Translations under genes and position numbers: made by a program | In this document: positions 18,882 to 48,754 of the stretch, in pieces | Position numbering within the stretch: position 1 is the first letter of the stretch | Layout of the letters: every line of letters starts with the position of its first letter | Source of the DNA: Fomitopsis serialis | Taxonomy: Eukaryota; Basidiomycota; Agaricomycetes; Polyporales; Fomitopsidaceae | Assembly (NCBI RefSeq): GCF_022376445.1 | Contig: NW_025955012.1 | Span: forward strand, 62,001 to 126,000 | Direction: 5' to 3' | Length of the DNA: 64,000 nt | Notes under the pieces: generated by a model | Told to the model about the DNA's origin: nothing | Database searches by the model: none | Seen by the model: the letters and a program-made list of their open reading frames with translations, nothing else

Positions 18882-20609
18882 TTACATCCTCCCGTTCCAA
18901 TGCTCGATCTTTGGATGGTCCAGCAACGTCCCATCATCATCGACACACTCCAACACCAGCTCGTCCACAAAGTCCATGACACGTTCATCGTCAAGCATCA
19001 CGCTTGCAGGATCTCTGCCGTCACATGGAACCATCCCCGAGTCGGACTCAGAGACGGCCGTGCAGGTTATGTTGCGCAAGGGATAGCCGCGTTTGGCCCG
19101 TTTGATCGTTGCCCCCAAGGCACAGACGGGCATCCATGGTTTGAAGCTTTGAATGTGTTTTGCAACGCGCAAGCGTTTCAAGCCAGGCAGGAGCATGGGT
19201 TGGTTATCCACCAGAAGCGTGATAGCGTCTTTTTCCGACTTCACGCCCTCCGAGTCGCCGACTGAGATGGTGAGGGACTCAACAGCAGGTGCGGATTCGA
19301 AGAGCGTGCGAATGATGCTCTGCGAGAGGGAGCCGATCCTCAGGCGAAGGATTTCCACTGTCGAGAGATCGAAGCGCTGGTCGAGGAATTCCACCACTGC
19401 TTCGAGCATGCCGTTTTCCTCGGTCCGCGAAAGTGCTAGTTCTGTGCGAAACGTAAAGGAGTTCAGGGTGTCGTGGCATTCGAAGCAGAATCCCGACCAG
19501 AGAGAGGCGTTGGCCCAGAGGCCCAATTCCTTGACAGAACCTATGCGAGAGAAAAAGGGCGCATCGGGTAGCTTGAGGAGTAATAGGTCACTCCATGCCG
19601 CTGTGGGTACACCGTCGGGCGATTCGCAACTAAGCGCAACTGACCGGCTAGGGATGATTTGTTGCAGAATGCATACAAGGACGAGCCAATCGCAATCCGT
19701 CAAATCGACGACCCGTAGGCTAGGAAGAGAGACTTTCCGGGATCCGAGGGGCAAGTCGCTTGGTCCAACTCCCTGTATAACGAGTTGTTCCAGTTGCGGG
19801 GAGCTCCCTAGGAAGTCCAGAAACTCTTCAAAGGAGAGCTTGCCATACATGGGCGGATATTTTACGAAGAGGTGGGTGATATGGGGAAAATGGGTTTGGG
19901 GCCACGGCAGATAGTACCAATCAACGAATAGACGCATGAGAGGCACCATGCCGTCAAAAAGACGCGGAGTGTCTATGGTCGGCCCGTAGTAGTCGCTGTC
20001 AACTGTCAGATGGAGGCCTTCGAGGACGGGCGCAGGTTGACTGAACAGTCTCAAGTGCATCATATTAGACCCCCCCTCCTCGATGGAGTCGAAGTCGGAG
20101 ACGAAGCGTAGTCGTTGAACGCGGTGCATGTGTGGCTCGATATGAGGTATCAAATGTTCCGCGTGTATGAAGGATACCTTGAGGGGTAGCATGGCACTAC
20201 GTCGAAGGATCTCCTTGAAGCTGTCCGATGTCGTCTCTGGATACACCTCGATATTTGACCAGAACGACGGGGTGGTGAGGATGCACCATCTCCAGTGTCG
20301 GCATACCAGCTGCATGTTGTACAGAATGCGGAAACAGTACCAGACAATGTATCCATCTGGCCTGTCATCATAGTGTGACGTTTTCGTTATCGAGTTGAAT
20401 ATGCAAGACACAAAAATCTTGTGTAGTAGCTCTGGCGGTAGACGGTTTGGATTGGCGCGGCTATGTGAATCGATCGGTACAGTCCCGCCTTCTGCAGTTC
20501 CTGGTATGCCGGAATGAGCGACTGGTGCACTGGAGTCTCTGCACTAATGTCAAGTTCAGAAGTCTCGAGCGATGAGAACGAGTACCCACCTTGTGGTGCG
20601 AACCTCCAT
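18882..20609 (-). CDS. F-box/LRR-like protein 1 of the local family
   Basis: This is a candidate substrate receptor of an SCF ubiquitin ligase. A short first exon from the ATG at 20607-20609 (MEVRTT) is joined by an intron at 20539-20589 to a long open exon. The F-box core reads NRLPPELLHKIF, followed by LVCRHWRWCILTTPSFWSNI, the usual F-box end in this family. The remainder is a diverged leucine-rich array with motifs repeated in the neighbours, such as APVLEGLHL, FPHITHLFV, FLDFLGSSPQLE and KRAKRGYPLR. It closes with RVMDFVDELVLE and the terminal HWNGRM. It is closest to the broken copy at 32.2-33.8 kb. The first exon is less sure than the rest. Confidence 0.8.
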
Positions 20610-21048
20610 TATGCACCGTCTCTAACGTGCTACGGGGCTGAGGGAGTCTCCGAGGTGTGTTCAGGTACAGATGGCTCAGCTGGCGACAATTTGGAATGGC
20701 TTCAGGAGTAAGTTCGAGTTGAGATAGTGGGTGCAACAGTTACAACACTGTAACTGTACGGCGTCGACGCTGGCGTCGACTGGGCCTCGAAGTTCGTGTA
20801 CTTGTCAAGTCTCGATCGAGACGCGTCAGACCCAAGTGACGATGGTCGTCAGTCAAGATCTGTCACGTGGTTTATGAGCGTATTCACTGAATTTGGCACA
20901 AGCCAGGCCCGAATATTAATCGGTCCTCGAACTGTATACATGTCTTGTTGACTGTATACTAACTCAGAGTCTCAGACTGAGATGATAGAGGGAACTGAGA
21001 CATATATTGCAGACCAAAAAGTGGAAGCTACTACGCCAACTCGGAGCT
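20610..21048. other. Spacer between two F-box genes
   Basis: This 439-base stretch holds the 5' flank of one F-box gene and the 3' flank of the next. It has short inverted stretches (for example GGCGTCGACGCTGGCGTCGAC near 20760) but no gene. Confidence 0.5.
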
Positions 21049-22883
21049 TCACAGATTTCTCCATATTTGACCATTCCATCCTCGTACGTCCGGAACATCG
21101 TATGTGTGCTCCTCTACATACGAAAAATGCACGAAGTCCGGAGGCTGGAAACGAGAAGCATCGATGTCCGAGAGGTCGTGCTTGCCAAAATCTCGGGAGA
21201 CGGGTCGCATGTCGGAGTCCTGATTCCCGCCATAGACTTCCGCACAGATCAGCTCGCGCAGCCAGCAACCGTGGAGATCCCGGCTCATAGCGATTTGTTG
21301 AATTCGCTCCCACTCTAGAGGGACATCTTTGTTACAAACAAAGTTCAAGGATTTGATAGACGGTAATTGTCCCGGCGCAGGGCTCTCCGGCGTCCGGTAT
21401 AGGAAGGAAGGGCCGTGGTTCAGAGACTTCTTGTCGTGGACACGGAAGGTGCAATATTGAACGTTTCGCATGGCGTGAAGGATTTTGCGCACAGGTCGCG
21501 CAGTGTGTGACGTCCAAGAGAAGTGGCCGATGTCCACATAGAGCCGCAACACAGCTTCCAGTTGAAGAAAATGAGGTAATGATGATGTCAATGCGCCTAC
21601 GATATCTTCTAGGGCCCAGGAGGGCGGCAACATTATGTTGAAAGTCAGAGAGCCTGTGTCACTACGACACGAGAACGTGAACCGACCGCTCTGTTGGATC
21701 CAGATAGAGAAATCCGTCGGGGAACGAGCATGCGCTGCAAATGCGCAGTCTTTAAGAATGGCTTCGATGTAGATGCTGGCCTGTGTCTCGTGTACACTTT
21801 TCATTTCAATGGCCACGCCACTCGCGGGAACAACATGGTGCAACACACATGCGAGTGTCCGCAAGTGGCAACGTCGTATGACGACAGTATGCAGACGAGG
21901 GAGGTGTGCGCGCCGTGTACTCGGCCCTGGAAAGTCGACGATGTGCGACTCTGGTCCGGCGTCGACGAGGATGATCTCTTCCAGCTTCGGTGACCTGTCG
22001 AGGAAGTTCAAGAAGGCCTCTGACGACGTGGAGTCACTATCCTCAGGTGCGCCTGCTACATACAAGTGGGCCAACTCGGGAAGCCCAGGCGTACGCCACG
22101 GGTGAGCTCGGCGCAGCGAGAGGTGCGTGAGGTGCGGTGCGAACCCACTGAAAAATGACAACGGAATATAGGTATCAATGTCGTCGGCCAACATCAGACG
22201 GAAGCGCTCGAGAATAGGAGCTTGCTGATCCATGAAGTCTGTGTAAGACGCATCTTGGACGCCAAGTCCGGAGTCGAAATCCGACGCAATATCGAGGAAT
22301 TGAACTCGGTCCATATGTTGGCATAAGATGTCGCCCAGCTGATCCGCGTTGAGAAATGTAACATCAAGAGGAGTGTTTCCGGATCGTTCGGTGAACGCGT
22401 CGATTTCCTGGTATGAAGTATTCTCGTCTGCAAAGATCCTCGACCATAACCTCGGAAACGGTCTGACGATGTTCCTCCAGAGGCTGCAGACCAACTGGAG
22501 TGACTGCAGAGTATGAATTGGAGGTTTCGGCTCGACACGGTAGTGACAGCCTTCGAATTTGTCGATCGCAAGCCCCGGCGGGCTGTCCGTCAGGACAGCG
22601 AGGAATATGGCACGGAGGAGCTCGGGTGGTAAACGATGGAGTGGCACACTGGCGTTGCGCAACGTTTTGACCGTGGATGCTGCCGCAGAAAGCTGATGAG
22701 CAATTGTATCCATTGCATCAGGCTGCCAACTGAAAGGTGCTGTGGTCGGTAAAAATGGTCTAGACGCACATTCATTATGACTCACTCTTTGCCGGGTTCT
22801 ATTTCGGAAGCCAACTTCTGTATCATCGAGGCGAAATGGTGCATCGACATCATTTTCGACGATGATTGCTGCACCTGATCCAT
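21049..22883 (-). CDS. F-box/LRR-like protein 2 of the local family
   Basis: This gene is intact. The ATG at 22881-22883 starts a small first exon (MDQVQQSSSKMMSMHHF). A 56-nt phase-2 intron (22730-22785) joins it to DWQPDAMDTIAHQLSAAAST, an amphipathic N-terminal helix, and then the F-box LHRLPPELLRAIFLAV. The hydrophobic WRNIVRPFPRLWSRIF segment follows, then diverged leucine-rich repeats (APILERFRLML, LPELAHLYV, FLNFLDRSPKLEEIILVDA). The C-terminus PDVRGWNGQIW carries the same W-[DN]-G signature as its relatives but extends four residues further. It is the most diverged member of the cluster. A role in recruiting substrates to SCF is inferred from family knowledge only. Confidence 0.85.
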
Positions 22884-23459
22884 TGGAGAGAACAGTGGCT
22901 CAGTATCGGTGTTGTCCCTTTTAGTGCTGTGTCTAACGACGCATGAGTTCGATATTTATGTCAAGCAGCAGAGCACATAGCCTACCTCTTCACTGGGACG
23001 AGAAAGATGTCAAGAGTCACCAGTCGTTGTGCACGGAAGGCTGTTACGTACGCTTGCCAGAAGTGTTAAATCGTAGCAAAAGTGTGTCAAGGCAGTCGCG
23101 ACTCACAAGTATTCACTCGTAGGACTATGATGTCGGCGGCGGGAAGCAAGCGGGAAGTGCGACTTGAACGTTTGAACACGCGTCGTCGCCAACTGACACG
23201 AAGCAAACGCGGCCACGTGCTACTCGGCGTTCTTCCAAATCCAAGTTGTGACACTTCGTCGAGGAGGCTCCATGGTACTACTCCACGAGTCCTCCCAGGA
23301 CAGAGTGTCATTGACTGTGACAACCAGGCGTGCTGCATAAGACATACTTCGATAAAAGCAGATGCGTAGATTTCTCTTGACAGAAAGATATACAAGTGCT
23401 TACGGTATACGGTATCTCCAATATTTCGCAAGGTCCCAGACACAGACGAACCAGATGAT
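22884..23459. other. Intergenic, no gene seen
   Basis: This is the 5' flank of F-box gene 2 and the 3' flank of the Dug3-like gene. Short frames lack motifs. Confidence 0.55.
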
Positions 23460-24535
23460 CTAGAAGGCGACTGCAACAGGCACTTCCTGAAGCTGCATCC
23501 TTGCATCAACCATGACGCAGTGGTTCTTCGGGATGAGCTGCCAGTCATGCTCCTTGTACGTGCTCGGCTCGCTCGCAACGATTACATGCTCCCATGCTCG
23601 CTCTCGGGCTTCGCACCGTCCCTATCCACGCCCTCGTCCGGATGATCGGGATACTTCCTGTTCAGCGTCACGCCAGCCTTCGTCGAGTAGTACAGCGACG
23701 GCGGATGTTCGGTAGCGTGGTTCCGGAAGCGGATGGCCAGGAGCTGCGTACCATCCGTGACAGCGAGGTTCAAGCTCGACGCGTCAATGCCCTTTCCCTG
23801 CTTCGCCATCACGCGTTTCTGCACCTCAATGACCTTCGCGATCGCCTGTTCGAGGGCCGCCTTGACCACCGTGAGGGGCTGCGACGTCTCCCACGCCTTG
23901 GCGCCCCCGCTCCGCTCGAGGAATGTGAAGAATAGCGCGGCGAGGGTCTCCGAGTCGGTCGTACCCTTCACCTGCGCGCTCGCTTCGTCGGAGAGCTCGA
24001 GGGAGAGCTCGCGGCGGGCCTCGGCGAAGTGCGCGACAGACCCGTTGTGCATGAAGAGCCAGCGCCCGAACTGGAACGGGTGGCAGTTCGATTCCGTAAT
24101 CGCGGTGGAGCCGGAGGCCGCGCGGATGTGCGCGAAGACGCAGTGCGTGGACGTGTTGGCGCAGATGGAGGCGAAGATTGGGTCTGTCGTGGGAAGGCGG
24201 AGGACTTTGTAGAGGGCTGGGTGGGGCCCGTCGCACTCTCCGTAGTCTGCGCGAGCCTTCGAGTACCTGCGTATCCCGACACTGAGCATTTTCATAAAGA
24301 GTATAGAGTAAGAGAGAATGTACCAGCCTACGCCAAGTCCGTCCATGTTGTATGGGCTGTTTCGCAGGTTAGACTCGGCCTTCGTCGCAGCCTTGGTTAG
24401 GTCTGGCTCATATTCCGCGAGATGGGGGAGGTAGCGGTCGTGAACCTGCTTCGCCAGACTGTGCTTCGGCACGATGAGCACGTCCTCGAGCAAGCAAGGC
24501 TCGGTGGTCGAGATGTACGTGAACCAGCGGCACAT
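23460..24535 (-). CDS. Class II glutamine amidotransferase, Dug3-like
   Basis: This is a predicted Ntn-type glutamine amidotransferase. In yeast, Dug3 with Dug2 forms a cytosolic complex that cleaves glutathione at the gamma-glutamyl bond. The protein begins MCRWFTYIS, so removal of Met exposes the catalytic Cys2. Conserved blocks are SPYNMDGLGVGWY, HCVFAHIRAASG and ESNCHPFQFGRWLFMHNGS, and near the end SLNLAVTDGTQLLAIRFRNH. The start frame stops at 23582, but the expected C-terminus (HVIVASEPSTYKEHDW through IPKNHCVMVD) continues in the next frame to TAG 23460-23462. The switch is at CCC 23591-23593 and fits one missing base. No intron is needed. The enzyme is otherwise of family length. Confidence 0.85.
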
Positions 24536-25501
24536 TGCGATGTATGTCCCGGTGCAAGTGAGCGAGGCTCTGATAGTCCACAGTCAATACCACGCTCGTT
24601 AAATAAGACTGGAGCTGCCGCGCGCCCTGAATTTTGCCGTTAGAGCCTCGCTGTCACGACGTCATGTTGGCTAGCTATCGCCAGGGTGAGCGTCCGGACG
24701 GTATGAAAAGCGACGTATCTGGAGTAAGTTCGCTCATGTGGACATCCTCATGGCATCGTCGCTGGCGAATAGAGGACGCCGAAGGTGTCTGGAATCGAAT
24801 GGTGTCTCGCGCAGCAAGTCACTCCGCGGCTTGCCTGGCGATTTGGTAGGTCATTGGAGATTAATGGCCGTTCCGAGTTCAGAGATCAAAGTCATGGCGC
24901 ACAGAGACATGTTCATTCCCTGTTCTTGCCGTGTAACGACGCGACATGCATCCAGACCCGAAGCGAAGAGAGTTCTACTTATGAGGCAGTAAGCAGTACG
25001 TAGCAAGTCGAGTTCCTTGCATTGGCGCCCACCGCTTCGTGCTACCAGCGCCTCCTGCTCCTGCTCCTTTCGGCAACCCCCGGCTACGCCGCGCAAAATC
25101 TCCCATTCCTCGCCAATCCACACAACACAGGGCGGCATTCGTCAAGGTGAGCACAATTCCCTCGAGTCTATGCACAGACGGTGGGCGACAGATGTCCGGG
25201 ATGCTTGCTGGGTGGTTTCGGACTTGGTAGGGATTGGGGAAGGGATGGATTGGACGGGGTGCAGTGGGATGAGGTCGGATGGCGCTTGTCAGGGGAGGGT
25301 GGGTTCGAGCTGCTGGAAGCGAGGTTGCCTGTGGGATGGAGCTGATTGCACCTCAGGACGGATGGAAACTGTTCCTTGGGACGGTTGTGCACCGCCGTTT
25401 GTCTGCAATCCTCCAGCGTACTACACCCGCACGACCACCGTCCATGCCCAAACTGCTGTATTCCTGCGTATTGACATTTTTCTGCGTTAGACTAGGTAGC
25501 A
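24536..25501. other. Divergent promoter region of the Dug3-like gene and uL23
   Basis: This 966-base stretch separates two divergently transcribed housekeeping-type genes. It should hold both promoters. CT-rich stretches precede the uL23 start, as is common for fungal ribosomal protein genes. Overlapping frames such as 25017-25490 show no family motif. Confidence 0.55.
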
Positions 25502-26200
25502 ATGGCCCCCACGAAGAGCACCAAGGGTAAGCAGACCGCGAAGGGTAAGTGCACGTTCGACTGGGTCTATGAGTCCTGCGTTACTAACACGTTGGCACAG
25601 CGTCCTCGAAGGATGCCAAAGCCAAGGCAGCGAAGAAGGCGGCGCTGCACGGTACGCACGCACATGCCCCGCGCAAAGTGCGCCACTCCGTCTCGTTCCA
25701 CCGCCCGAAGACCCTCCGTCTCCCCCGCGACCCCAAGTACCCGCGCAAGTCGATTCCCCATGTGCCGCGGATGGACCAATTCAGGACGATTGTCTCGTGC
25801 GTGATAACGTTCTTGCCGTGCAGGGCAAGGAAGCTGATAGGGTTTGGCAGGCCGCTGAACACGGAGAGTGCGATGAAGCAGATTGAGGAGCACAACACGC
25901 TTGTGTTCATTGTTGACCTCCGGTCAAACAAGCGTCAAATCAAGGACGCGGTGAAGAAGCTGTACGACGTGCAGGCCGCAAAAATCAACACCCTCATCCG
26001 GTACGTCGTACTGGGTTTATGTTCGATGAATATTGCTGACATTCTTGTCTTGCAGGCCTGATGGCAAGAAAAAGGCGTACGTCCGCCTGACGGCGGACCA
26101 CGATGCCTTGGATGTTGCCAACAAGGTTTGTTCGAGCTTTTCAGGCTGCTGGTGATAAATACTGACGGAAGTCCACTTTTGACAGATTGGCTTCATTTAA
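25502..26200 (+). CDS. RPL25: Large ribosomal subunit protein uL23 (RPL25/L23a)
   Basis: This is cytosolic 60S protein uL23, which sits at the polypeptide exit tunnel and docks SRP and nascent-chain factors. Five exons are cleanly definable, with introns at 25545-25600, 25797-25850, 26001-26055 and 26126-26185. They give the basic N-terminal tail [14 protein letters not shown] with KAKAAKKAA, then [58 protein letters not shown] and the very conserved end [23 protein letters not shown] before TAA. The last exon codes only IGFI. All parts expected for the eukaryotic L23a form are present. Confidence 0.96.
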
Positions 26201-27017
26201 ATCCCACCATGGCGTCCTGCCTCCTCTCCTGTCGGGCTGTGTGCGCCGCTGCTTTGCTGCCTGTCCGCGTCTTCCTCGCATCGAACCGGTGTTATCATGT
26301 CGTGTATGCATACCTCCATGCCTACGTACGAAACCAGCTATGCTATACTTACCATGAGAAAGTGAAATCTTCTGGGTGTGTATGAGATCATCGGCTTCGG
26401 CTTTGTGGCGAAATGGAAGCGTTCGAGGCCTGCTGGCCGGTGAAAGCGCGGCTGGGAATCGGCAGCGAACGACCTCGTGGATACTACTTAGATCGCCCTG
26501 TCCACACGCGTACGAGAGCGGTTGCCAACACCGAGCCGCAACGAAACGCGCGACTCGCGTGTAGCTTGCGTGTGGCTGCGCAGCGAGTGTCCTCAGGCCT
26601 CTCCGGGCGCCTTGCGACGGATGCATCCAGAAATCGAGCTGCCCCGAGTCCCCCGCTGGCAGCGACGAGCATCCATCTGAACACTCGCAACAGACGTACG
26701 GGAAGGTTGATTGGGGGTTGATTAGTGCGGCCGTGCGATCCGCCGGAGACTGAGGCAGGACTGAGCCGCGGAAACGCCTTGGCGGCAAAATAAAGACAAA
26801 GGGTAGCGGCGCGCGTCTCGGACTTCTGCCCCAGGCGTAAGTTATTCCTCCTTGTCCTCCTCGTCCTCGCACAGGCCTTCGCCTTCGCCCGTCCCTGCCC
26901 ACCATAGCAGCACCACGCTCCTTCTACCTGGCGGACGCTTTCAAGGCAGTGTCGCGCCGTCCCCGCTCACCCGCAGCATAGCAACACCGCTCTCGCCCGT
27001 AACCACGCGCCCGACCA
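26201..27017. other. Intergenic, no gene supported
   Basis: This is the 3' flank of uL23 and the promoter side of the mucin-like gene. A 254-codon frame on the minus strand (26141-26905) overlaps the uL23 end and shows only Arg/Gly/Pro-rich sequence without motifs. Confidence 0.5.
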
Positions 27018-30000
27018 ATGTTTTCTGTCTTCTCCTCTCGTCTGCTCGTCCTTCGCCTCTTCGTCTTCGCGCTCGTCCTGCAGATCTCTTATGCTCATGC
27101 CTTCACGCACTCCTCCTGGAAGTCCTCTCATGCCCGTCGCTCCTTGCTCCACAAAATCCAGGACAAGATCTCTGGTCTCGACCCCCGCCAGGATCATGGT
27201 CTTTTTGGCAGTGGAGGTAGCACCGCTCGTGAGTCGTCCTATTCTTCGCGAATGTTCATCTGTGCCCCCTCTTTTCGCTGTGCTCCCTCTTTACGACCTC
27301 TGCGTCGTCGCGCCGCCTGTGGCGACCGATCGTTCTTCACGTCGATCTTTCCTGCCACGTTGTGCGCGGCCCACCGACGAGTTACGCGTATGCACGACCT
27401 GCGCAGCACGATCTTCGTGTCACATACAATGCGGAGTGTATGATCTTGTGCGCTGCGGACGTGGGGTTTGGCTGTCCCCGAGTGACAGAACCTGCTGCAC
27501 CCGTAGCAGCAGGACACATCCGGTATCCATGGGCTCGAAACCCTCCTCTGGCTCCTATTGTGCTCCTTACGGACATGGAACATGCCCCATTCGGTCCGCT
27601 GTGGTTGCAGAGGGTTCGCTCGGTGGGCGCTTACTAGGCATGTTCGAGTGCGCACTGCCCCCGGTGGGTAACAGCGGGAGTGTTTGGTTAACCAATTTAC
27701 CTTTCGGCATGATCCAAGACAACGTTTGCGCGTTGTGCCAGGACCGAGGAGGCTTGAACCGTAACTTGTAGGATCTGGCCTTCTTGTCGGGATGGTCTTC
27801 GCCCGAACAGTCTGGATAGAATATGCTGTCTCTCATAGCCGGCCTACCTCATTTGATCAAGGCTCCCTCCCCAATTATCAGGGGTCTTGCTATGCCTTCA
27901 CCACGAGTGCCTGATGTTGGGCAGGGAGGTCAGATCAGCATTCCAGAAAATGTGGTTGTTTCGGGAGAACCGGTCGCCTGACGTCGCTCGGGCGAATGTA
28001 GGGTTTGCACTGGGAAAGGCCAGGTATGAGTGACCTTGTCCTGTGAGCTATACCTCGTCGCATCATGGGCAGGAATACTCCTCGCTAGTGTGCTATGCCA
28101 GGGGACGGTCAGGTCTGTTGCCCAATGCGAGGGATTCGCTTTCGCGTTCTGTGATCGTTACCTCTGCTCTGAGATGATTTACTGACCTTACGCTTGTCTC
28201 GTTAGCATCTAATCCAGGAAACGGCGGGCTTTGTCTCCCGTCCCTAGGACTGACGGACGGTTGTTCCAGCTCATCTGGGACAACCGCCTTGGTCCCCGCG
28301 ACGTCGACGTCTGTTGGGTCGTCTTCCGCGTCGAGTTCGAGCTCTTCCTCGTCCGCCTCCTCGTCCGCGTCGTCCTCGTCCACGTCGTCTTCTTCCGCCT
28401 CATCGACATCCGCACCCTCGTCAAGCGACCCGGCGTCGTCCTCGAGTGCAAGCTCGTCAGGCGGCTGCGTAAACCTTCTTGGCATCGAAATTGGCTGCTC
28501 GTCGAGCTCCGACAGTGCATCGTCCACCGTCGCTGCGTCGTCCACCCCCAGCGCAACGGACTCGAGTACCGCAAGCGCGTCGCCCAGCTCGTCTGCGACC
28601 GTCGCGTCAACCACCGACTCGGGCAGCGCGGGCAGCACCTCCGCGTCCACGCCTGCGAGCAGCTCAGCTGACCCTACCAGCACATCGAGCGGTGGTGGGA
28701 TTTGTATCCTCGGTCTGGGTGATGGTTGCTCGTCGAGCGACAGCGCGTCGTCGACTGCACCCGCTTCCACGGCCAGCGCGACTGACTCCTCTAGCGCGGC
28801 GGATTCGACATCCGCCACCGACTCTTCGAGCGCAGCCAGCTCGCCCACTGCGACCGACTCATCCAGCTCTGCTAGCGCCTCGTCCAGTGGAGGCATCTGT
28901 CTTCTCGGTCTCGGTGATGGTTGCTCTACGAGCGACAGCGCGTCGTCTACCGCTTCGTCAACCGCCACGGATTCGTCTTCGGCTCCTTCGACTACCACGG
29001 ACCCGTCTTCTGCTTCATCGACTGCGACTGACTCCACCAGCGGCTCGGCCACGACGACGGACTCTGCCAGCGCAACATCCGCGAGTTCGTCCTCGTCCGG
29101 CCTCTGTCTCCTCGGGCTGGGCGACTGCTCGTCCTCAACCGATTCGGCCTCCTCTACTGCCTCCTCGTCCGGCTCCGTGAGCGTATCCGCCACTTCTACT
29201 GACTCGGGCAGCGCGTCGAGCTCGGCGACTGATTCGGCGAGTTCTACGTCGGGCTCGACGACGGACTCGTTGAGCTCGACCGCGACCTCCACGGGCTCGG
29301 CCAGCGCGACATCCTCGAGTGCGACCTCGTCTGGTCTCTGTATCCTCGGTATTGGCGATGGCTGTTCCTCAAGCGCTACCGCGACGAGCTCAGGCAACAT
29401 CTCTTCCACGGCCACGAGCTCCGCGTCGACTACGACGGGTGTTGGGAACGCGACGACGACGATCTCGAGTGTGACCACTATCACGACGGTGTCGGGGAAC
29501 CAGACGATCACTTCTACGTCGACCAGTGCTATTACTACTGTAACGTCGCTCAATGGCACCAGCTCTGCGTGAGTGTCTTCCTTTTACTGATAAGCGCGGT
29601 ACTCGGATACTGAATACACATACACAGCACCTCGACCATTACCTCGAGCGCGAACGCCACGTCCACGGCGAACAGCACGATTACAAGCTCAGCAAGCGCG
29701 AACATGACCAGCTCTGCGATCATCAGCTTCCCGTCGCAGAACACCTCGACGTCGTTGTCGTTCACGTCGCTTTCGACGTTCACGTCGACGACTTCGTACT
29801 CGCGCATCACGCCCTCCGCCAACTCGGACTCGTTCCTCACCCAGTCTACGCTCATCCTCGCGTCGCAGTCGTCCTCGAGCGCCACGCCGACGAGCAGCAT
29901 GACCGATCCTGACCAGCCTACCTCGACTGTGTCGATCCCGAGCAGTGTGTCTGCGTCTGCGAGCCCGTCTACGGCGGCCCTGCCGACTAATTTGCCGGTC

Positions 30001-30927: not shown

Positions 30928-32208
30928 CCGGGTAGCAGACAGAGGAATCCTGGGTCGTCGTGACGATCTGCAGAACTGTTGCTTCTCTTTCTTTCGTCCT
31001 TGCTCATTGCGCGCGCTGTGTCTTGCGCCGAAGACGGTCCAATATACCAGAGCCACCACTGTGTCAGTTATTGGTGACTTATTCCAGCTTGTTTTCCGTT
31101 ACTTGTGTGACTTGGGCCTGTTGATGTGAATGGGAATGATGTATGTGTAAACGGTAGATCGACTACGACGCTCCTGTATCACGTCCGGCGGCTTTTAGAT
31201 CGGGCCGGGCAGTGCTTGGGAGGTGCGTGTCTCGGGCAGTCTTCTTTGCATCGTCGCACGTATGTACCTCCCTCTGCTCCACGGACTTCTCTTTCGTCTT
31301 AAGCTTGTGGATCCTTTTTTTCCCTATTTATCATAGTCAGACTCAGCGGATTCCTCGCGTCTTGCTGTCGTCTCTTAATCGTCATGTTGTCATTCTCTCG
31401 CGCTGGCTGCCCCTGTAAATGATTCTTGTGCTATGTTTTAGTGGTAGCTTGGCTCGACTAAAATGTGTGATAGTGGCGAGTACACGTTAGCCGTCATATA
31501 TCCATATGCAGGCGATCGCGCCATTATGCTCACTTTAGGTCGTTCCGAAGTGATTTAGAACGCTGAGTTGTAGTGCTAGCTACTGTACTGCAGTCTGACG
31601 AGACAGTGGAGCAGGCTGGCAGGTCTGTCATCCTTTATGTAATGCTCGACTAACCCTGCTCATGGAATCCTGGACTAGTCGGAGGTGGGACATGGCATAG
31701 TCGGTCTGTGCCATCGGAAGTAAGGATCGCGACTCGGAGTAGCCTGTACTAAAGGTGATGCTCATGGGTTTTACTCCATGTTGCAGTCGTGTCTTTTCTC
31801 TCCTCGCCGCTCGATGCCATTACATACATGTAACTCTTTGGCGTGCATGAACATCAGAATCAAGATTGACCAATTCGCGTTGCGCTCGTTCTATCATGTG
31901 ACCGCGTTTGGGACAGCATTTCAAATTGGCGCGTCACGGTGTTGCGCCTGGCTGTGGCGCCTGGCCTGCGTCCACGACCACCTCACATTGCATTGGATCC
32001 GTGCGGTCTCGTCCTCTGCAGCTCTTCTCCTTTGTCTGCGTTCTAACGACCCGCCACTGGAAGGCGCTGTGTGCGATGGAAGGTGTCGGTGGTATCAATA
32101 CGATGCGAGTGTATCCGTTCTCTGTGCTCCATGCGTAGACCTAACTTTTGCATGTATACTCAGATGCTACCCTCTGCCTGTTGGTCGTTGTGTTGGTGAC
32201 CAAGCTTC
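30928..32208. other. Intergenic, about 1.3 kb, no gene supported
   Basis: This holds the 3' flank of the mucin-like gene and the region before the broken F-box copy. A frame open from 31778 leads into the F-box part, but its upstream half has no protein-like pattern, so the true first exon of that copy was not found. Confidence 0.5.
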
Positions 32209-33824
32209 CAAATGCGACGTGGCGTTGACGAAGCGGAATGGCTACGACTTTCTTAACCGCTTGCCGCCGGAACTCCTGCACGAGATTTTCGTGCTTTGTA
32301 TGTCTTACTCGGCGAAAGAAAAGCCGCGCTATATTCAAGGACCAGACAAGAATCTCGTATGTCGCGCGCTGGATCTTCTCTACTCCATGCAGTCGGTGTG
32401 CCGATATTGGCGGCGGGTCTTCCTCAATACCCCATCATTCTGGTCGAATATCGAGGTATACTGCGATACGACGTCAAGCAAACTCGAGTAACTCCTGCGA
32501 CGTAGTGCCCCCATGCCACTCAAGATATCTTTGATGGATGCTGAACACCTGCTGTCCCACCTCGAACAACACATGCATCGCGTACAGCGGCTCTGTCTCA
32601 CCTTTCTTGTCGGCCGCGTGGAGAAGGTAGACACTCTGTTGAGTGTACCGTTGTTTGCGACACCCGCACCTGTCCTCGAAGGTCTTCATCTGACCTTCGA
32701 TGCGAATACGAACCTGGGCAACCACGCATTCGTTCCGCGCCTTTTCGATAACACCGCACGCCTTACCCGTGCCTATTTCAAGCGGTGCTTGCCGTGGCCA
32801 CACAACACCTTTCCGCACCTCACTCATATCTTCGTCGGTTGCGCGTACGCCGCCTACAACAATCCCCCGATCGCGGAGGTTTTGGATTTCTTGGAGGGTT
32901 CTCCGAATCTAGAAGAAGTCGTCCTAGACGGAGTCAAAGTCGGAGATCTCCCTCCGTCGCAATCGTCCCGGATAGTCTCCCTACCTTGTCTGCGAAGTGT
33001 TGTCTTGGACAACTGCGAATCCCTCCTTGAATGTTTTATCGGACATGTCATCCCTTCCGAAACTGTCGCGCTGCGCTGCGACTGGTTCGATGATGCACCG
33101 AAAGGCGCTACATGGCGCTTCGACATCCTCCAATCCGGTGCGCCATTCTTCTCTCGAATCAGCCCGGTCAAGGAGTTGAGTTTCTGGACCACGGATTACG
33201 TGTGCGGGGAATTCTGCTTCGCATGTCGCGACCTCGTCGGTTGTGTTACGTTCAACGCGGTTCTGGGTTACTCGCTGACCATAGGACGACGATGATGACA
33301 TCCTCGAAGCAGTCCTAGAGTATCTTGCCCAAAGATTCGATCTCTCCACGGTCGACAAGCTTCGCCTTCAGGTCGCCCGCGTTCTGGATAGGTCTTACGA
33401 CGCCCTTTACGCGCTTCTCCTCGCCACTCCCACCGCCGCGTCGCTCACCGTGTTCGTGTTCGAAGACGTAGATGAAGAAGGCTTGATCTGGCTTCTAGCA
33501 GACGACGACCCTCCACTCCTGCCTCAATTAAAGCACGTCCGCGTCGCCAAACACAATGAAACGTTCCTTCTGTGGACGCCTACATCCGTCTTGGACGTAG
33601 CGATGGAACGGGCCGAGCTTGGCTACCCACTGCGCAGCTTGACATGTACGGCCATCTCGTCCGAGCCAGAGATGGTTCCACTCTACGGGTGGGATCCCGA
33701 GAGCGTGACGCTTGACGGTGACCGTGTGATGGACTATGTAGACGAGCTGGTGCTTGACCGCATGGATGATGACCGCAGATTTCTGGACCGTCCCGAGCCT
33801 GTGAACTGGAACGGTAGAATGTAG
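32209..33824 (+). pseudogene. F-box/LRR-like protein 3, broken copy
   Basis: This is a close relative of F-box gene 1 on the opposite strand. The F-box NRLPPELLHEIF and VCRYWRRVFLNTPSFWSNIE are intact. A TAA at 32489-32491 stands where gene 1 has the Glu of its SFKEILRRSA segment, with the same frame continuing on both sides (LLRRSAPMPLKIS follows). A second break lies at about 33284 (ATAGGAC), where the frame changes by one extra base or two missing ones, just before DDDDILEAVLEYLAQRFDLS. The rest runs to RVMDYVDELVLD and the terminal NWNGRM. Two unlike lesions make this the best pseudogene candidate of the window. No clear N-terminal exon was found. Confidence 0.75.
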
Positions 33825-34146
33825 TGTCTCCAACTACAACCCATTGTACGTTACCTTGCGTTCTTTTCTAACTGCAATGCTACCCGTCTCCGCTGCATAC
33901 ACGCCACGATCGCTGTGCACTACAGGTGTCTTTACGAAAGCAGAAATTGCGACTAATTCGTATAAATACCCAATCTACAGTGGAAGATTAGATGAATGAT
34001 ATATACACTACAATCGTCATATCCCAATAGCTACTGAACATGCTTCCCCACGTCCCCTACCATTGTTCGTATACTAGCATAGTTACACAAACCCTCCGAG
34101 AGCAACTTCTATTCATGCTCGATGCACAGCGTCCCCTTCATTGTTC
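33825..34146. other. 3' spacer between convergent F-box genes
   Basis: This 322-base stretch joins the 3' ends of F-box copies 3 and 4. It is AT-rich in the middle and holds no gene. Confidence 0.55.
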
Positions 34147-35925
34147 CTACAGCATACCGTCCCAGCCATGGATTACAGGCGGTATCATCGGAGACGACCC
34201 AACTGCCCGCAATTCAACCTTATCAACGAAGTCCATTACGCGTTGCCGTCCGATTTTCATTGTCTCTGGATTCCAAAGGACGAATGTCGGGACGTATTGG
34301 CCAATCTTGAGTCCCGTGCAAGTCAGCTCTTGGAGCCGGTATCCCCGCTTCGCTCGTCCGATCGCCACGCCCATGGCCCAGAATGGCTTCCACCACTTAG
34401 GAAGCTCTCCGACGAAGTGGAGAGATTTCAGTTTGGGCAACGGGACGCCGAGGACTCTAGATTCTAGACAGGCGCGCCAGTACTTCTTGTCCAAGCTAGG
34501 GTCGATCCAGATTGTGCACGATTGAACCGCAAGCATAGATTGCAGCATGCCTTGAACGGCGGGCGACCATATAGGAGCAAAGTCGTGTATCTTGAGTCGG
34601 AAGTCCGTGACGCTGTGGAGAGGCAAAATTTGCGGGAGCTCCGCCACGAGAGCCGATGCCAGCGTGCCGCAGACAGGCTCGGGTAGGCTGCAGTCCAACA
34701 CCATGTCGATCTTCAACATAGCCAGGGGGCCTTCGCACGTGAAGCAAATTTGGCCGTCATTGAACCAGAGGGACAGCCGAGCCATGTCATCGACGTGCTG
34801 CAAGAACGCTGCACCCGGCGCGAGGATAGCAAGTAGCTCGCGTGATAGTGTCAACTGTTGCAGTTCGACAATTTCGATCTCGACATGGGTTGAGGGGACG
34901 ACGTGTCGCAGGACGCAAGCGATGACCTGCCAACGGCACACGTCGAATACGAGAGTGCGGAGGTGGCTCAAGGTTACGCAACGAGACAGCGGAAAACTAG
35001 GAAGGAGTTCTGGGAGAATGCACGGCCCCGCTTCTTCCAAAACGATTGCTTCTAGCTTCGGCGAGCCTTCCAGGAAGTCGAGGAAATCTTCAAGCGACGA
35101 CGGGCTGAACGTATACTGCATACTGAGATACAGATGGGTGAGGTTTGGAAACCGGTTCGTCGAACAGAGATAGTGCCGGCTGAGGGAGAGACGCGAGAGC
35201 CGGGGAGCGTGGCCTTGAAACAATTTAGGCATCATGATGAGGTAGGGGTCATCTTCGTGCGTGGAGACGTGCAAGCCGTTCAAAAACGGGGCGGGTTGGA
35301 AAAGGAGCGAGAACCGCCGTGAGAGTTGCATGTTCTGCGTGGAGCTTTTCTCGAACGTAACCTCCAGCCTTTGCATCCGATGCATGTGCGGCCCGATATA
35401 CTTCACCAGGTGGTCGGCACGGAATACAGATACCTGTAGCGGGACGACACCGGCCCTCTGCAGCAGCTCGTGGAGTGCAGCCGTTGGCGTCCGCTGGGTG
35501 AGCTCTATCTCGGACCAAAGCACGGGGAAGGATATTGCTATCTGCCGCCAGAGTCGACAGACAGTTTGGATTGCATGTTTCCCTCTACTCGGGTGATTCC
35601 GTTGCGATTGTCGTGGACAGTCCATGACAACGCGCGAGAAGATCATGCACAAGATTTCGGAGGGAAGGCGGTTGATAGGAGCCAGAATATTGCGCGTGTG
35701 TTCGACGCATAACATGGCACGTCGGAGTTGGTCTGCAACACTGTCCAAGATAGCTCGGTGGCCGCTGGGAATCGATGTCATTGGTAACCATTTCGCCTTG
35801 GTGGTGGAAGCAACCCACCTGAAGAGCTCGCCCGCAGACCTGTCGACGCTGGCGGCAAGCATAAGAACTTCGGCAGCCGTCTTGCTGAAGAATTCTAGAC
35901 TCGGTGGTATGGAGGCGTCCATCAT
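34147..35925 (-). CDS. F-box/LRR-like protein 4 of the local family
   Basis: This is an intact single-exon gene. I chose the tandem ATG at 35920-35925 (MMDASIPPSLEFFSKTAAEV) because the amphipathic start resembles those of the neighbours; the frame is open upstream to 36069, so a longer form is possible. The F-box is NRLPSEILCMIFSRVV, with AIQTVCRLWRQIAISFPVLW after it. The leucine-rich part carries the family blocks APFLNGLHV, KLFQGHAPRLSRLSL, FPNLTHLYLS, FLDFLEGSPKLEAIVLEEAG and LKSLHFVGELPKWWKPFWAM. It ends RVMDFVDKVELR and HGWDGML. It pairs with genes 5 and 6 as one subgroup. A role as SCF substrate adaptor is inferred from the F-box. Confidence 0.88.
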   Translation of the reverse strand: MMDASIPPSLEFFSKTAAEVLMLAASVDRSAGELFRWVASTTKAKWLPMTSIPSGHRAILDSVADQLRRAMLCVEHTRNILAPINRLPSEILCMIFSRVVMDCPRQSQRNHPSRGKHAIQTVCRLWRQIAISFPVLWSEIELTQRTPTAALHELLQRAGVVPLQVSVFRADHLVKYIGPHMHRMQRLEVTFEKSSTQNMQLSRRFSLLFQPAPFLNGLHVSTHEDDPYLIMMPKLFQGHAPRLSRLSLSRHYLCSTNRFPNLTHLYLSMQYTFSPSSLEDFLDFLEGSPKLEAIVLEEAGPCILPELLPSFPLSRCVTLSHLRTLVFDVCRWQVIACVLRHVVPSTHVEIEIVELQQLTLSRELLAILAPGAAFLQHVDDMARLSLWFNDGQICFTCEGPLAMLKIDMVLDCSLPEPVCGTLASALVAELPQILPLHSVTDFRLKIHDFAPIWSPAVQGMLQSMLAVQSCTIWIDPSLDKKYWRACLESRVLGVPLPKLKSLHFVGELPKWWKPFWAMGVAIGRAKRGYRLQELTCTGLKIGQYVPTFVLWNPETMKIGRQRVMDFVDKVELRAVGSSPMIPPVIHGWDGML

Positions 35926-36876
35926 GTGGGTATGCAAACGTACTAGAGGCAGGGTAGCGGCCTGGCACCGATCCATGGGACGTGCACTATATATGCTGGT
36001 GGCCATTGGCGCTGCGTAGTGACAAACCTCCGTGTAAGGCAATCGAAGCAAAGATGGAAGTGAAGCCACAAGTAACCGTACCGCCTTTGTCTTTCACGGT
36101 GGCTTTGGCCGCATCGTGGCCCTGCATGCTGCAGCACGACGCTTAGTACCGTCCAGCCAATGGTTGCTTGGTTGCTTAGCAACATCGAGAACAATGCTGC
36201 ACAGATATGGTAGTTTTCAGCTGTGACGATCACTTGTCTTTGTCTTTGCATAGCAGTGTCCAACCGGGTGGTTCGTGGAAGCGTGTGGCGGCGTTACACG
36301 CCGCGGCCACACTGCTGATCCCGATGATGCCGATCTGTGGCTGCAGCTGGCGCTCAGTGTGGTCCGAATCCTACCGCCTGCCACATCGATTCGGACGCAG
36401 CCACATACACGAAACAGAGGACCTGTGCCAATCTGCACTCTCCAGCGCATCTTCCCTTGAATTCGCCGCTGTAATGTGAAATTCTTCGTCACAGATTTGA
36501 CAATAGATAAAATTCTAGGTCCGTCAGAGGACTTGTCTGTCTCAAGGCGGCCTGTGATGCAAAGTTCACAACTGCTGTCAACTTCTCATCCAAATTATGC
36601 TAGCGATGGGGTTACGGCATCAATTGAAGTAGGTGAGGTCTCATTTCTATTCTGCGCATCTACGAGATTGTCGTGAAGCTGGATTATCAAATGTGGCCAC
36701 CGGCCACATATGCTTTGACTCGGACAGGTGCAGCGCTTTGACCGCACCTTGTCGCCATTCTTTGTCTACTCGTGACCACAGTACACATATATAGGTTCTG
36801 CTTTTTCCAACACGTCTCTTCCTGGACATCGCCACTGTTCCTCTTGTGTTGTTCTGTCTCCCCTACTTCCAGCGCA
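35926..36876. other. Divergent promoter region of F-box genes 4 and 5
   Basis: The two genes point away from each other, so this stretch of about 950 bases should carry both promoters. A TATATATAGG element at about 36786-36795 lies 80-90 bases before the gene 5 ATG. ACTATATATGC near 35986 sits at a similar distance before gene 4. No other gene was seen. Confidence 0.5.
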
Positions 36877-38704
36877 ATGTCATCTCCACAGCCTGAGCTG
36901 CAATCGCGTGTCGCCGACATCGACGAACTTGCATCCGATATCAACCGGATGGTTTCTGCCTTCTTACAAACAAGCAGTCGTGGCCCTCCTCGGTTGGTCC
37001 CAATCTCCCTCCATACCTATCCCTTTCCTCACATTGCGCCTAGGTTCGGGGTGACACCACTCGACCATGTCGCTGCCCGACTCAACGACACGATCGTTCA
37101 CGTTTCCCTTCTGCATAATCAATCATCTCACATCAACCAGCTGCCCGTCGAGATCCTTCGGGCTATCTTCATGCACCTCATCCCCGACCATCTAGACCGC
37201 TCGCACGCACCGCGGCCGAACGTCACTATGTGCGCCGTCCAAAGGGTCTGCCGATGGTGGAGAGCTGTCATCTTCGAGGACCCTAGTTTCTGGTCGAATA
37301 TCGAAGTCCGGGGCAAGCTCACTCCCTCGGCCTTTCAAACGCTAATTGGGCGCAGTAAATCCTTCCCCTCGACATATCATTCTTCGGCGCCGAGCACCTT
37401 GTGGAACATCTGGACGCAAACATTTCTCGGGTCCGAAGGCTCCAGCTGCTCGTGCACGAGCCGAAAGAGTGGCTCTTGAATAGAGATATATTGCCGCTCA
37501 TGGATCCCGACGTTCTGCAACGTTCATTCTTCTGCCAACCCGCGCCGATCCTCGAGGGTCTACAGATCTTCATCGGTCCTGCGTGGGCATACAGGACCCC
37601 TTAACCGATCTGTTTCAAGGGCAAGCGCCTCAGCTCCGCGATCTATGCTGCATCGGCAATCCTCTTCACGCCACCAACAAGTTCCAGAACCTTACCCGTC
37701 TGTTCCTGTGGATGGCCTATCCCGACGTCCCTGTAGTTAGCTCCGCAACGCTCGACTTTTTGGAGGGCTCTCCCAGCCTTGAAGAGCTGGCTTTGCATCA
37801 TACTGGACCGCATTTCGTGGAGGATCTACACACCTTCGCCGACCGACGTGTGTCGATGCCACGGCTCAAGAAGATCACTCTGCTGCAATCCTGTTTTGAG
37901 AACACGGCGCAACTCTTCCGCAATATCGTCCCAGCTCAACACGCAGTGATCCAAGTCGACCAGAACTGGGCACATATCTTGCCCCACATCTTCCTCCGCA
38001 TATTCACGAAGGACGCTGGTTTTCTGCAGAACGTCACCAACGTGACTGACCTCTCCGTCTGGGCTGGCAGTCAACTGTGTTTCAAATGCGTCTCGGCCAC
38101 GGGATCACTCACATTCAACCTCGAGTTGAAGGAGAAGAAAGAGAAGAAACCGGTCTTGCCTGACGGCCGCCGCATCCCGCACTGGCACCATCACCTCTCC
38201 GTACCTTTTATAGAGATGCTGCCACGAACATTCAACTTGGAGCACGTCGACACTTTCAAGATCGACGCCGACGTATGTGCAGGGTTGCCGTCGCTAACGG
38301 TTCTAGCTCTCTTCCATTCTATGCCCGCCGTCCAGTCGTGCGCGATTCGGCTCCATTCGCACCTTCCGTTGAAGTCCTGGAGCAAGACTCTGTCGAAGAA
38401 GTCCGTTACGTTCCCTGCCTTGGCGTCCCTCGAGTACGTCGGCACCTTCCCCGAGACCGAGCGACTCAAGCTCTTCGATGTGGCCATCCGCCGAGCGCGA
38501 CGTGGCTCCCCATTGCGCGAGCTCAAGTTGACTAACATCCCTGCCCAATGGGCGGATCTTAGCGAATGCACTCGCGTTGATGTAGAATCCGTCAAGGTCG
38601 GTAGTCACCGCCTTCTGGACTTCGTCGATTCTGTACAGGTGAGAGCTGCTGAAGAGTCCCCCATGGCGCCACCGATGTTCACGCACTGGGACGGTAACAT
38701 CTGA
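36877..38704 (+). CDS. F-box/LRR-like protein 5, two single-base frame breaks
   Basis: The start ATG at 36877 gives MSSPQPELQSRVADIDELAS, an amphipathic lead-in like that of gene 6, then the F-box INQLPVEILRAIFMHLIP and VQRVCRWWRAVIFEDPSFWS. The protein pattern then changes frame at CCCC 37365-37368 (SFP continues as LDISFFGAEHLVEHLDANIS) and again at CCCC 37597-37600 (before LTDLFQGQAPQLRDL). Both fit one missing base in a C run. The rest is open: FLEGSPSLEELALHHTGP, LASLEYVGTFPETERL, RRARRGSPLREL, RLLDFVDSVQVR and the terminal HWDGNI. The gene is otherwise complete, so I list it as coding with suspected sequence errors. Confidence 0.78.
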
Positions 38705-39391
38705 TTCTTTGGATATGCACGAGTTGCTCGTTCTATGAAGGAGACCCATCTACTGTACATGTACTAGTATGCTTCCGTTATCGGTCATGTACATAAAAAC
38801 TCTTTGCGACTCGTACGACTCGTCTTACTCCCAACATTCCGGTCACGTTCATGTATATCGTACTCAGGCTCTGGCGTCCTATTCTTCACCTATCAAGCGC
38901 GAGTGCGTGTCGAGCATCTCGGTCGGAGCAAGTAGTAAGTCCCCAACATGTCCCGATGAAACCAGCGGTTCTGGCCCGCCCATCGACGGCTGCGATGCAC
39001 GGAGGTGGTCGATTTCTTGCTCCATATCGCGAATGTCTCGGGTGTTGAACCGAAATCATACGGTTTGCACTGTTGACGCGAACCAATTCTATAACGATGC
39101 GCAGTGAGCCTCACCGACACCGCGGAGGCAATAAGTTGAAGTTGCTGAGGAGGAGGAGATTCCATGTAGTCACCACGTTCGAGCGCCGTAGGGCTCGCCA
39201 TGCGTTGAGGAGTGCCCAGCTACGCTCGCCCAGCCACCGAACTTGATTTGCTTTGACACGGACGCCACCGCTTTGGCCACAATGTCTGGGCGTCATGGCC
39301 ACCGAGCTATAAACAACATATATAAGCGCCTCAGGAGTCGTACCCCTTGACCACTGAATCCTCCTGCTCATCGTCGATTACATTCAGCCGC
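38705..39391. other. Spacer between F-box genes 5 and 6
   Basis: This 687-base stretch is the 3' flank of gene 5 and the promoter of gene 6. A TATATAAGCG element lies at about 39318, some 75 bases before the gene 6 ATG. No gene was seen. Confidence 0.55.
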
Positions 39392-41315
39392 AATGGAGCA
39401 ACTTGAAACACCAACCATTTCCACAATCGCGTTGCGGGTGTCCGACATCGCCGATAGCTTGATTGCTAGAAATGTTCGTCTGTCCCGGTGAGAGCATCTG
39501 GATTTGAGCGTATGAACCGTCACTGACCTTGATGCGCTTGTGACCAGCGAGGAGAGCGCCACTCTTGCCCATGCCCTTGGCCAATTGCATCTGGCAGTTA
39601 CAGGCCTTCGCTGCGCTCGAAATATATCCCATGGCATCCATCGTCTCCCGCTGAAGGTCCTGCAACGGATCTTCACCTTGGCCGTCTACGACAAGTTCCC
39701 GATGAACCGGCCGTCATACCAATCGCCAGCGCAGCTCACCATGTGTTCGATCCTGACGGTGTGCCGCTCGTGGAGGCAATCGGTCTATAACTGTCCCGAG
39801 TTCTGGACGACCATCCAGGTGTGCAAGAAGACTACCTCACGCGGCCTCTGGGGCCTCATTGCGCGCAGCAACTCTCTTCCGATCAATTTGGCACTCTCTG
39901 GCTCGGACCACCTCGTTCGGTATCTCGACGCGAGACACGATTCACCCGGGCCCCCGATACGGATACGGAATCTCCAACTATTTGTGCGGCCACCGTCCGG
40001 CTGTAACGACTCGCCTCGGGCGCCATGCGTTTGCGGGGACGTTCAAGACACGCAGCTGCTGCAGCGTCCCTTCTTCCATCAGCCGGCTCCGCTCCTCGAA
40101 GGCCTGCAGCTGTTCGTAGGTGGTCCCTCCATCTCCTCCCAGCCTCTCCCAAGGCTATTCAAAGGCTCCGCCCCTCGCCTTTCTCGTCTGGTCTGCATCG
40201 GCCTCTCGCCACACATCAACAACCGCTTCGCAAGTCTGACGCACCTGTATCTCTACGAGGGGACTGCGGCGTTCGGCGACACCCCGGACTCGGAGCTGCC
40301 GCACGACGCGCCGTTCCTGGCGTCGTTCCTCGACTTCCTGGAGGGCTCGCAGAACCTCGAGGAGCTCGTGCTCGTGCACGATTCTTGCAGGCGCCGCGGA
40401 TGCCGGCGCTGTCGGGACGAGCCGCCGGCGCTGGCGGGGCGGCGCGTGCATCTGCCGCGCCTGCAGCGGATCACGTTCGACGAGGAGGCTTGGCTGGGCG
40501 CGGGACGTCTCCTCCGGTACGTCGTCCCCGCGCGGAGGGCGACCGTGCAGTCCGACTGCTCGAAGATACGGTCGGTGATTGGCAATGGACACTCCATGTA
40601 CGACTTCCTGCCCGTGCTCACGAGGGACGCGGGCTTCCTGGCGCACCTCAGCGGAATCACGAAGGTGGCGCTCTGGCTGACGAAGAACCAGCACTGCTTG
40701 ATGTGCAGCGGCCCCGATTGCGCGCTGACGCTCAACCTCGTGCACGGGTTGATCCCGCTTGAGATGCACGTAGTCCAGACGCACTTTTTGACAGTGGCGC
40801 GTGCGTTCCCCACGGAGTTCGTGCGCGCGGTCGTGCGGGCGCTGGACCTGCGGGGCGTCGTGGACCTGAGCGTGCAGATCGGCGGGGTGTCCCTCCTCGT
40901 CGCCGACGCGCGGGATTTGTTTGCTGCCATGCCCAAGGTGCGGACCTGCACTGTCGGGTTTGACGCGCGCGTGCACAGGAGCTTTTGGAGCAGGTGCCTC
41001 TCGAAGGCGGACGCACCCTTCCCGGAGCTGAAAACGCTGCACTTCGTGGGCGACCTGCCTGCGGGGTGGAAGCCATGGGAGGTCCTGGGTCTCGTCATCC
41101 GGCGGGCCATGCGTGGTCGTCGCTTGGAGGGGGTGAAGTTCACCGCGGTTGCGAGCGATGACTCGGAGCCTGAATTCGTAAAATGGAACGCGGATGTGCT
41201 GCGAGTGGGCGGGAGACGGGTGCTTGACTATGTCGGCTCGCTGGAGTTCGGGCGGGTAGGAGTCTCGCCGATGGACGCTCCCGAGGTTGATTCTTGGGAT
41301 GGAAGTTTGCTGTAG
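39392..41315 (+). CDS. F-box/LRR-like protein 6 of the local family
   Basis: This gene is intact. The ATG at 39392 starts MEQLETPTISTIALRVSDIA. A 60-nt phase-2 intron (39488-39547) joins RLS to REESATLAHALGQLHLAV. The F-box-like core is HRLPLKVLQRIFTLAV, followed by SILTVCRSWRQSVYNCPEFW. Later blocks match genes 4 and 5: APLLEGLQLFVGG, RLFKGSAPRLSRLVCIG, FLDFLEGSQNLEELVLVHDS, LKTLHFVGDLPAGWKPWEVL and RRAMRGRRLEGV. A Cys-rich insert (CRRRGCRRCRDE) lies in the middle. It ends RVLDYVGSLEF and DSWDGSLL. Its 3' half is markedly GC-rich, which produces long shadow frames on the minus strand. Confidence 0.9.
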
Positions 41316-48307: not shown

Positions 48308-48754
48308 ATTTGGTGGACATTCAGCTCCCTCACCTTGCTTCGGTCCCCCTGAGTCTCGGCGTGACGACGTCGTCGACTCTCCGTGCTACCTTCGCTTTGG
48401 TACGCACTGCTTGCTGCGCGCCCTTGCTGCCGCACAAGCCCCGCTCGTCTCGTGTCGCGCTACACATTCGAGCTCGGTGTACCCCGACACCGCCCTCTGC
48501 AGCTGCCCCCCCTTGTACGCAGCCCGTCGCGTACCCCTTGCCGGCCTTTCCTCCCCTCTCCCCTTTGCCAGCGCGCCGCTTTCTTGCACGTGCTTGTCGG
48601 TGCGACGCACTCCCGCTCCCGACCTCCCCTTGGCTCGGACCGTGCGATCCTCAGCGGTCTCGCACTCCTCGCCACCCACACCACGACTCGCGACGCCTGT
48701 GTTCAAACGTTCACACCGCCTGTCGTCACGCGTCCCGCACGCAGTTCCGCCAGC

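What the first reader, a model, noticed from the sequence alone, without database searches (positions are those of the whole stretch)
18882..41315. Cluster of six F-box/LRR paralogs sharing a C-terminal W-[DN]-G tail
All six end with a short tail of W, Asp or Asn, then Gly (HWNGRM, RGWNGQI, NWNGRM, HGWDGML, HWDGNI, DSWDGSLL). In five of them it is preceded by about R-[VL]-[ML]-D-[FY]-V. The LRR body varies much more than this tail. Strong constraint on an extreme C-terminus in a fast-changing F-box family suggests a shared contact, for example with a common partner or as a structural cap. I know of no description of this tail.
Basis: partly seen in the sequence, partly recalled or inferred. 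Interest (0 to 1): 0.75.

Follow-up and report, generated by a model that had tools for sequence, protein, structure and literature searches.

The report
Fungal F-box/LRR cluster with conserved tail
Six related fungal genes, probably for protein-degradation adaptors, share a short tryptophan-glycine tail that marks their branch of a large family and most likely closes off the end of the protein's repeat domain, an undescribed but modest detail.

Summary
The six genes and their W-[DN]-G ends are real; the window is Fomitopsis serialis. C and E are broken in this haplotype but open in the second; A is the reverse.

Two searches without the tail found 6 non-self relatives at E<1e-50, including Daedalea and Fibroporia proteins. 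All 6 carry the tail. With the six paralogs they form one clade against 7 outgroup rows (100/100). Of 50 more distant hits 1 has a tail match, as does 1 of 26 other F-box frames of this genome. The last 97-100 residues of the six gave no Pfam match better than E 0.05.

"The LRR body varies much more than this tail" is not supported: 24 other columns are invariant, and the best short tail windows rank in the top 7-16%. The Trp lies 23 or 25 residues after an invariant Asp in 11 of 12 members, while 0-7 residues follow the motif. That favours a structural cap over a free C-terminal signal. Predicted order is moderate and uneven (pLDDT 78-82 in D, 61 in A).

The parts
18882..20543 (-). Gene A: F-box/LRR frame, 553 aa stop to stop, open in the window; its copy in the second haplotype contig is broken
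18885..18899 (-). tail of A, WNGRM
21049..22899 (-). Gene B: F-box/LRR frame, 616 aa stop to stop, most divergent member; open in both haplotypes
21052..21078 (-). tail of B, WNGQIWRNL
31724..33824 (+). Gene C: F-box/LRR, broken in the window (in-frame stop and frame break), open in the second haplotype; true start not determined
33807..33821 (+). tail of C, WNGRM
34147..36093 (-). Gene D: F-box/LRR, the only one of the six returned as a database protein (P0001, 553 aa model)
34150..34164 (-). tail of D, WDGML
36742..38704 (+). Gene E: F-box/LRR, broken frame in the window (36742-37479 and 37484-38704), open in the second haplotype
38687..38701 (+). tail of E, WDGNI
39516..41315 (+). Gene F: F-box/LRR frame, 599 aa stop to stop, open in both haplotypes
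41295..41312 (+). tail of F, WDGSLL

Best explanation
The cluster is a small, old subfamily of F-box/LRR proteins, probably substrate adaptors of SCF ubiquitin ligases. Its last element, P-x-[IV]-x-x-W-[DNS]-G-x-[VILM], is a clade-specific cap: after the last LRR strand and a variable loop, an extended segment returns to the solenoid, Trp covers the exposed hydrophobic end, and the [DN]-G turn folds the next aliphatic residue back. Shown: homology, clade-wide retention, fixed spacing, an LRR-like predicted fold. Inferred: that Trp packs on the solenoid end and that the proteins are SCF adaptors.
For: The tail is in 12 of 12 members of a clade with 100/100 support. Trp is 23 or 25 residues after the invariant Asp527 in 11 of 12, although the linker residues between are poorly conserved. 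The residues after W-x-G-x-aliphatic vary from 0 to 7, so the end is kept in place but not in length. In the model of D the tail has pLDDT 82 (541-550) and 78 (551-554), not the values below 50 given to the N-terminal stretch. Trp is enriched in the last 20 residues of 50 distant F-box/LRR hits (40 of 1000 against 442 of 26417, OR 2.45) and W-[DN] in their last 60 (16 of 3000 against 26 of 24417, OR 5.0), often right after a likely last strand. This suggests that Trp closure of the solenoid end recurs in the superfamily. Fold matches are LRR proteins including COI1, Skp2 and TIR1.
Against: In gene A the last ten residues reach only pLDDT 61 and the ten before 64. The alignments for both models held 12 sequences. 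DSSP gives the tail no strand. B has a distance of 30 and an insertion. The W-[DN] enrichment is not significant in 26 other F-box frames of this genome (6 of 1560 against 27 of 12943, p 0.16), and related proteins are not independent.
Confidence: 0.5

Rival explanations
1. Substrate plug: the Trp tail protrudes and enters a pocket of a target protein, as the last residue of FBXL3 (Trp428) enters the FAD pocket of CRY2.
For: Precedent in an F-box/LRR protein (PMC9845712, passages). A conserved Trp after a variable linker is what such a plug would look like. The FBXL3-CRY2 entry 4i6j is among the fold matches (rank 14).
Against: In FBXL3 the Trp is the last residue; here it is 5-12 residues from the end in 12 of 12 and the end length varies. 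The six paralogs are otherwise only about 25-51% identical to A, so one shared substrate is not the simplest expectation. The tail is predicted at least partly ordered.
Confidence: 0.15
2. SCF-core clamp: the tail returns to the F-box/Skp1 interface and stabilises it, as the C-terminal tail of Skp2 does.
For: Skp2 precedent (PMC7729025, passages). Skp1 would be a partner common to all paralogs, which fits conservation across divergent bodies.
Against: The last strand is about 15 residues from the Trp in D; that linker looks too short to span a solenoid of this size back to the F-box (inference). [quoted passage not shown]
Confidence: 0.12
3. Recognition by a clade-specific partner or regulator through an exposed W-[DN]-G motif.
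For: Restricted to one clade; the linker before it is variable.
Against: Fixed spacing to the last strand and moderate predicted order; no partner was tested.
Confidence: 0.13
4. Plain inheritance: W and G are simply two of about 26 slow sites of an LRR protein family and have no distinct role.
For: 24 other columns are equally invariant and the tail windows are not exceptional.
Against: They stand at the end of the chain after a poorly conserved linker, in lineages with long branches (about 0.3-1.6 changes per column on terminal branches of the own genes); an unneeded tail would be expected to erode.
Confidence: 0.1

Closest known systems
Skp2 / FBXL-type F-box/LRR adaptors
   Same: N-terminal F-box followed by an LRR solenoid; Skp2 also has a functional C-terminal tail
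   Different: No sequence match to Skp2 among PDB chains (only FBXL17, E 0.009, residues 37-117); the W-[DN]-G tail is not described in the passages seen
FBXL3 C-terminal Trp tail
   Same: conserved Trp at the end of an F-box/LRR protein
   Different: there it is the very last residue and enters a substrate's cofactor pocket; here W is followed by [DNS]-G-x-aliphatic and up to 7 more residues
Plant COI1/TIR1 F-box/LRR receptors
   Same: best Foldseek matches (COI1 3ogk E 1.4e-07, TIR1 2p1m E 2.7e-05)
   Different: TM-scores are low (0.19-0.25 for these rows) and sequence identity about 10%; no hormone pocket was examined
Other F-box/LRR proteins of mushroom-forming fungi
   Same: F-box plus LRR; Trp often near the C-terminus, for example P0008, P0026 and P0030
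   Different: they fall outside the clade in the tree for the rows tested, and 1 of 50 has W[DNS]G in the last 15 residues

Membership tests
F-box/LRR (FBXL-like) proteins | N-terminal F-box | tested here: met
   PF12937: D 25.6 and E 35.6 bits over the 24.3 cut-off; F 24.1, A 22.3 and B 20.5 just under it; 9 of 12 alignment members match at E<=1, P0003, P0005 and P0006 lacking that region in the database models
F-box/LRR (FBXL-like) proteins | LRR solenoid after the F-box | tested here: met
F-box/LRR (FBXL-like) proteins | binds Skp1 and acts in an SCF ligase | not testable with these tools
   needs protein-binding and ubiquitylation assays
FBXL3-type terminal Trp plug | Trp is the last residue | tested here: not met
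   W is 5 to 12 residues from the end in 12 of 12 members
Skp2-type tail | tail returns to the F-box/Skp1 interface | not testable with these tools
   no coordinates of the model were available
Named Pfam domain at the C-terminus | a curated model covers the tail | tested here: not met
   last 97-100 residues of six members: only DUF6628 at E 0.05 in 1 of 6 with E up to 10; positions of the weak matches of members 2-12 were not shown

The most novel reading that the evidence does not exclude
The W-[DN]-G tail is an undescribed docking or closure element that evolved repeatedly at the ends of F-box/LRR proteins of mushroom-forming fungi; in this clade it lets bodies diversify to recognise different substrates while one invariant end contact (own solenoid or a shared partner) is kept.
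Probability: 0.2. Interest if true: 0.5.

Novelty: new member of a known kind. Interest (0 to 1): 0.3.

Why it matters
F-box genes are numerous in mushroom-forming fungi (210 were annotated in Flammulina filiformis; PMC7567395, passages), and in the passages read no substrate is named for them. A clade-defining tail gives a simple marker for ortholog calling and a testable hypothesis on how these divergent LRR solenoids are closed. It does not reveal a new kind of system.

Tried and rejected
Each search scored only about 8000 candidates, and one search missed P0005, which searches had found, so the relatives listed are not complete.

Considered and rejected: a C-terminal carboxylate signal (degron or PDZ type), because the length after the motif varies; homology of the tail with the WDG of P0026 or L036, because there it follows a different context (a strand directly, or a Gly-rich acidic end); strong selection inferred from alleles, because there are too few differences (D: 2 silent; F: 5 silent and 3 changing).

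One search, a first look at C-termini of 18 loci, read some loci on the wrong strand; it was replaced. The 26 control frames contain two ending in WD-repeat sequence and several close paralogs. They are 20 of the 53 stretches asked for plus 6 earlier loci, out of 148 F-box-like matches. One duplicate, P0048, was dropped from 51 distant hits. Paper searches found nothing. Searches gave listings, and I saw no paper there on this tail. This is no proof of absence from print. Fold-search absences are not used.

Full report
What is there. The window belongs to Fomitopsis serialis: gene D is identical over the queried residues 130-560 to the database protein B0H18DRAFT_1017134 of that species, and the contig of that record has the same length, 256457, as contig C468 on which the window lies. 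Six homologous frames lie at 18882-20543(-), 21049-22899(-), 31724-33824(+), 34147-36093(-), 36742-38704(+) and 39516-41315(+), here A to F. All end in W-[DN]-G-x-[MIL] with 0, 4, 0, 0, 0 and 1 further residues. Gene C has an in-frame stop and a frame break and E has frame breaks in the window. A second haplotype contig, C177, 98.2-99.4% identical over the aligned blocks, has open copies of C (686 aa stop to stop) and E (654 aa), whereas its copy of A is in pieces (446 and 119 aa). Whether these are allelic pseudogenes or assembly errors is not known.

Tail-free searches. Residues 130-560 of D found 17 proteins. Seven have E<1e-50: D itself and P0002-P0007; the ten others have E>=1e-9. A profile of the six paralogs without their last 80 residues found 53 proteins; the same seven have E<=3e-88 and the next has 4e-40. 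All seven, thus 6 of 6 non-self relatives, end with W[DNS]G. Of the 51 other hits one duplicate was dropped; 1 of the remaining 50, P0026 of Pluteus cervinus, has W[DNS]G within the last 15 residues. Of 26 other F-box frames of the same genome 1 does (L036). The C-terminal 97 residues of D and 99 of A each hit 10 places in the whole genome, which are five of the cluster's genes in both haplotypes; B was not reached. In a tree of 19 rows the 12 tail-bearing proteins form one side of a branch with support 100/100 against 7 outgroup rows; the own six do not group apart from the relatives (D groups with P0002-P0006, starred, while B and P0007 branch near the base), though several forks are unresolved and B has a long branch.

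How constrained is it? On the alignment of 12 W550 and G552 are invariant, as are 24 other ungapped columns, including D527 in the segment R-[VL]-[ML]-D-[FY]-V. More columns are invariant among the rows that have them, because three database models lack the F-box. Sliding windows show the tail as above average but not exceptional (best 5 columns: top 7-12%; 8 columns: top 14-16%; 12 columns: top 34-40%). What holds is an isolated pair of invariant residues after the poorly conserved columns 536-544, at a distance of 23 (4 members) or 25 (7 members) from D527; B, with an insertion, has 30.

Wider context. In the 50 distant F-box/LRR hits Trp is 2.45 times as frequent in the last 20 residues as before them (40 of 1000 against 442 of 26417, Fisher p 1.7e-6), and W-[DN] is five times as frequent in the last 60 (16 of 3000 against 26 of 24417, p 4e-6). 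Several stand right after what looks like the last strand (ELVAELDWDG, QTVPTVDWDG, SAVTDVRWDG). In the 26 other F-box frames of this genome the Trp excess is weaker (16 of 520 against 246 of 13983, p 0.04) and that of W-[DN] is not significant (p 0.16). The proteins are related to each other, so p-values are too small. This still suggests that a Trp near the end of the solenoid is a recurrent feature, of which the cluster has its own version.

Mechanism. I favour a structural cap (0.5). The fixed distance from the last strand, the freedom of the residues after the motif, the turn-prone [DN]-G pair (general knowledge) and the wider enrichment of Trp at solenoid ends fit it. Known precedents allow rivals. 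The tail of Skp2 returns to the Skp1 interface (PMC7729025, passages). The last residue of FBXL3, Trp428, enters the FAD pocket of CRY2 (PMC9845712, passages). The FBXL3-type feature, Trp as last residue, is not met here. The linker looks short for a Skp2-type return (inference).

Novelty. No Pfam match better than E 0.05 was found for the last 97-100 residues of the six, no PDB chain matched the end of D, and eight literature searches gave no description of the tail that I saw (listings; none found). The proteins are members of a known kind with a clade-specific end. Interest is modest.

Noticed in passing
31724-33824 and 36742-38704; L039 and L040: C and E are broken in the window haplotype and open in contig C177, while A is the reverse: reciprocal allele-specific breaks in one gene cluster, or assembly errors.
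   Followed up: partly
18882-41315: Of the six genes only D came back as a database protein, though A, B and F were themselves in the query alignments; the others may be unannotated or annotated at lengths outside the searched range.
   Followed up: no
L036 (G000:C125:8792-12820): An F-box frame outside the family (618 aa) ends in a Gly-rich FWGYGGMWDGGFF, a second WDG end of a different kind in the same genome.
   Followed up: no
P0013, P0015, P0033: Three distant hits, two of them from Cytidiella melzeri, share another Trp-rich end, about ICTT-x-x-x-VH-x-YWPSW in P0015 and P0033 and a looser version in P0013; a F. serialis frame (L030) ends similarly with VCATESDMWPAWD.
   Followed up: no
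48365-50788: An 807-aa frame with a weak, below cut-off match to Retrotrans_gag (E 0.00099).
   Followed up: no
23585-24583 (-) and 25588-26058 (+): A class-II glutamine-amidotransferase-like gene and a ribosomal protein L23 gene lie inside the F-box cluster.
   Followed up: partly
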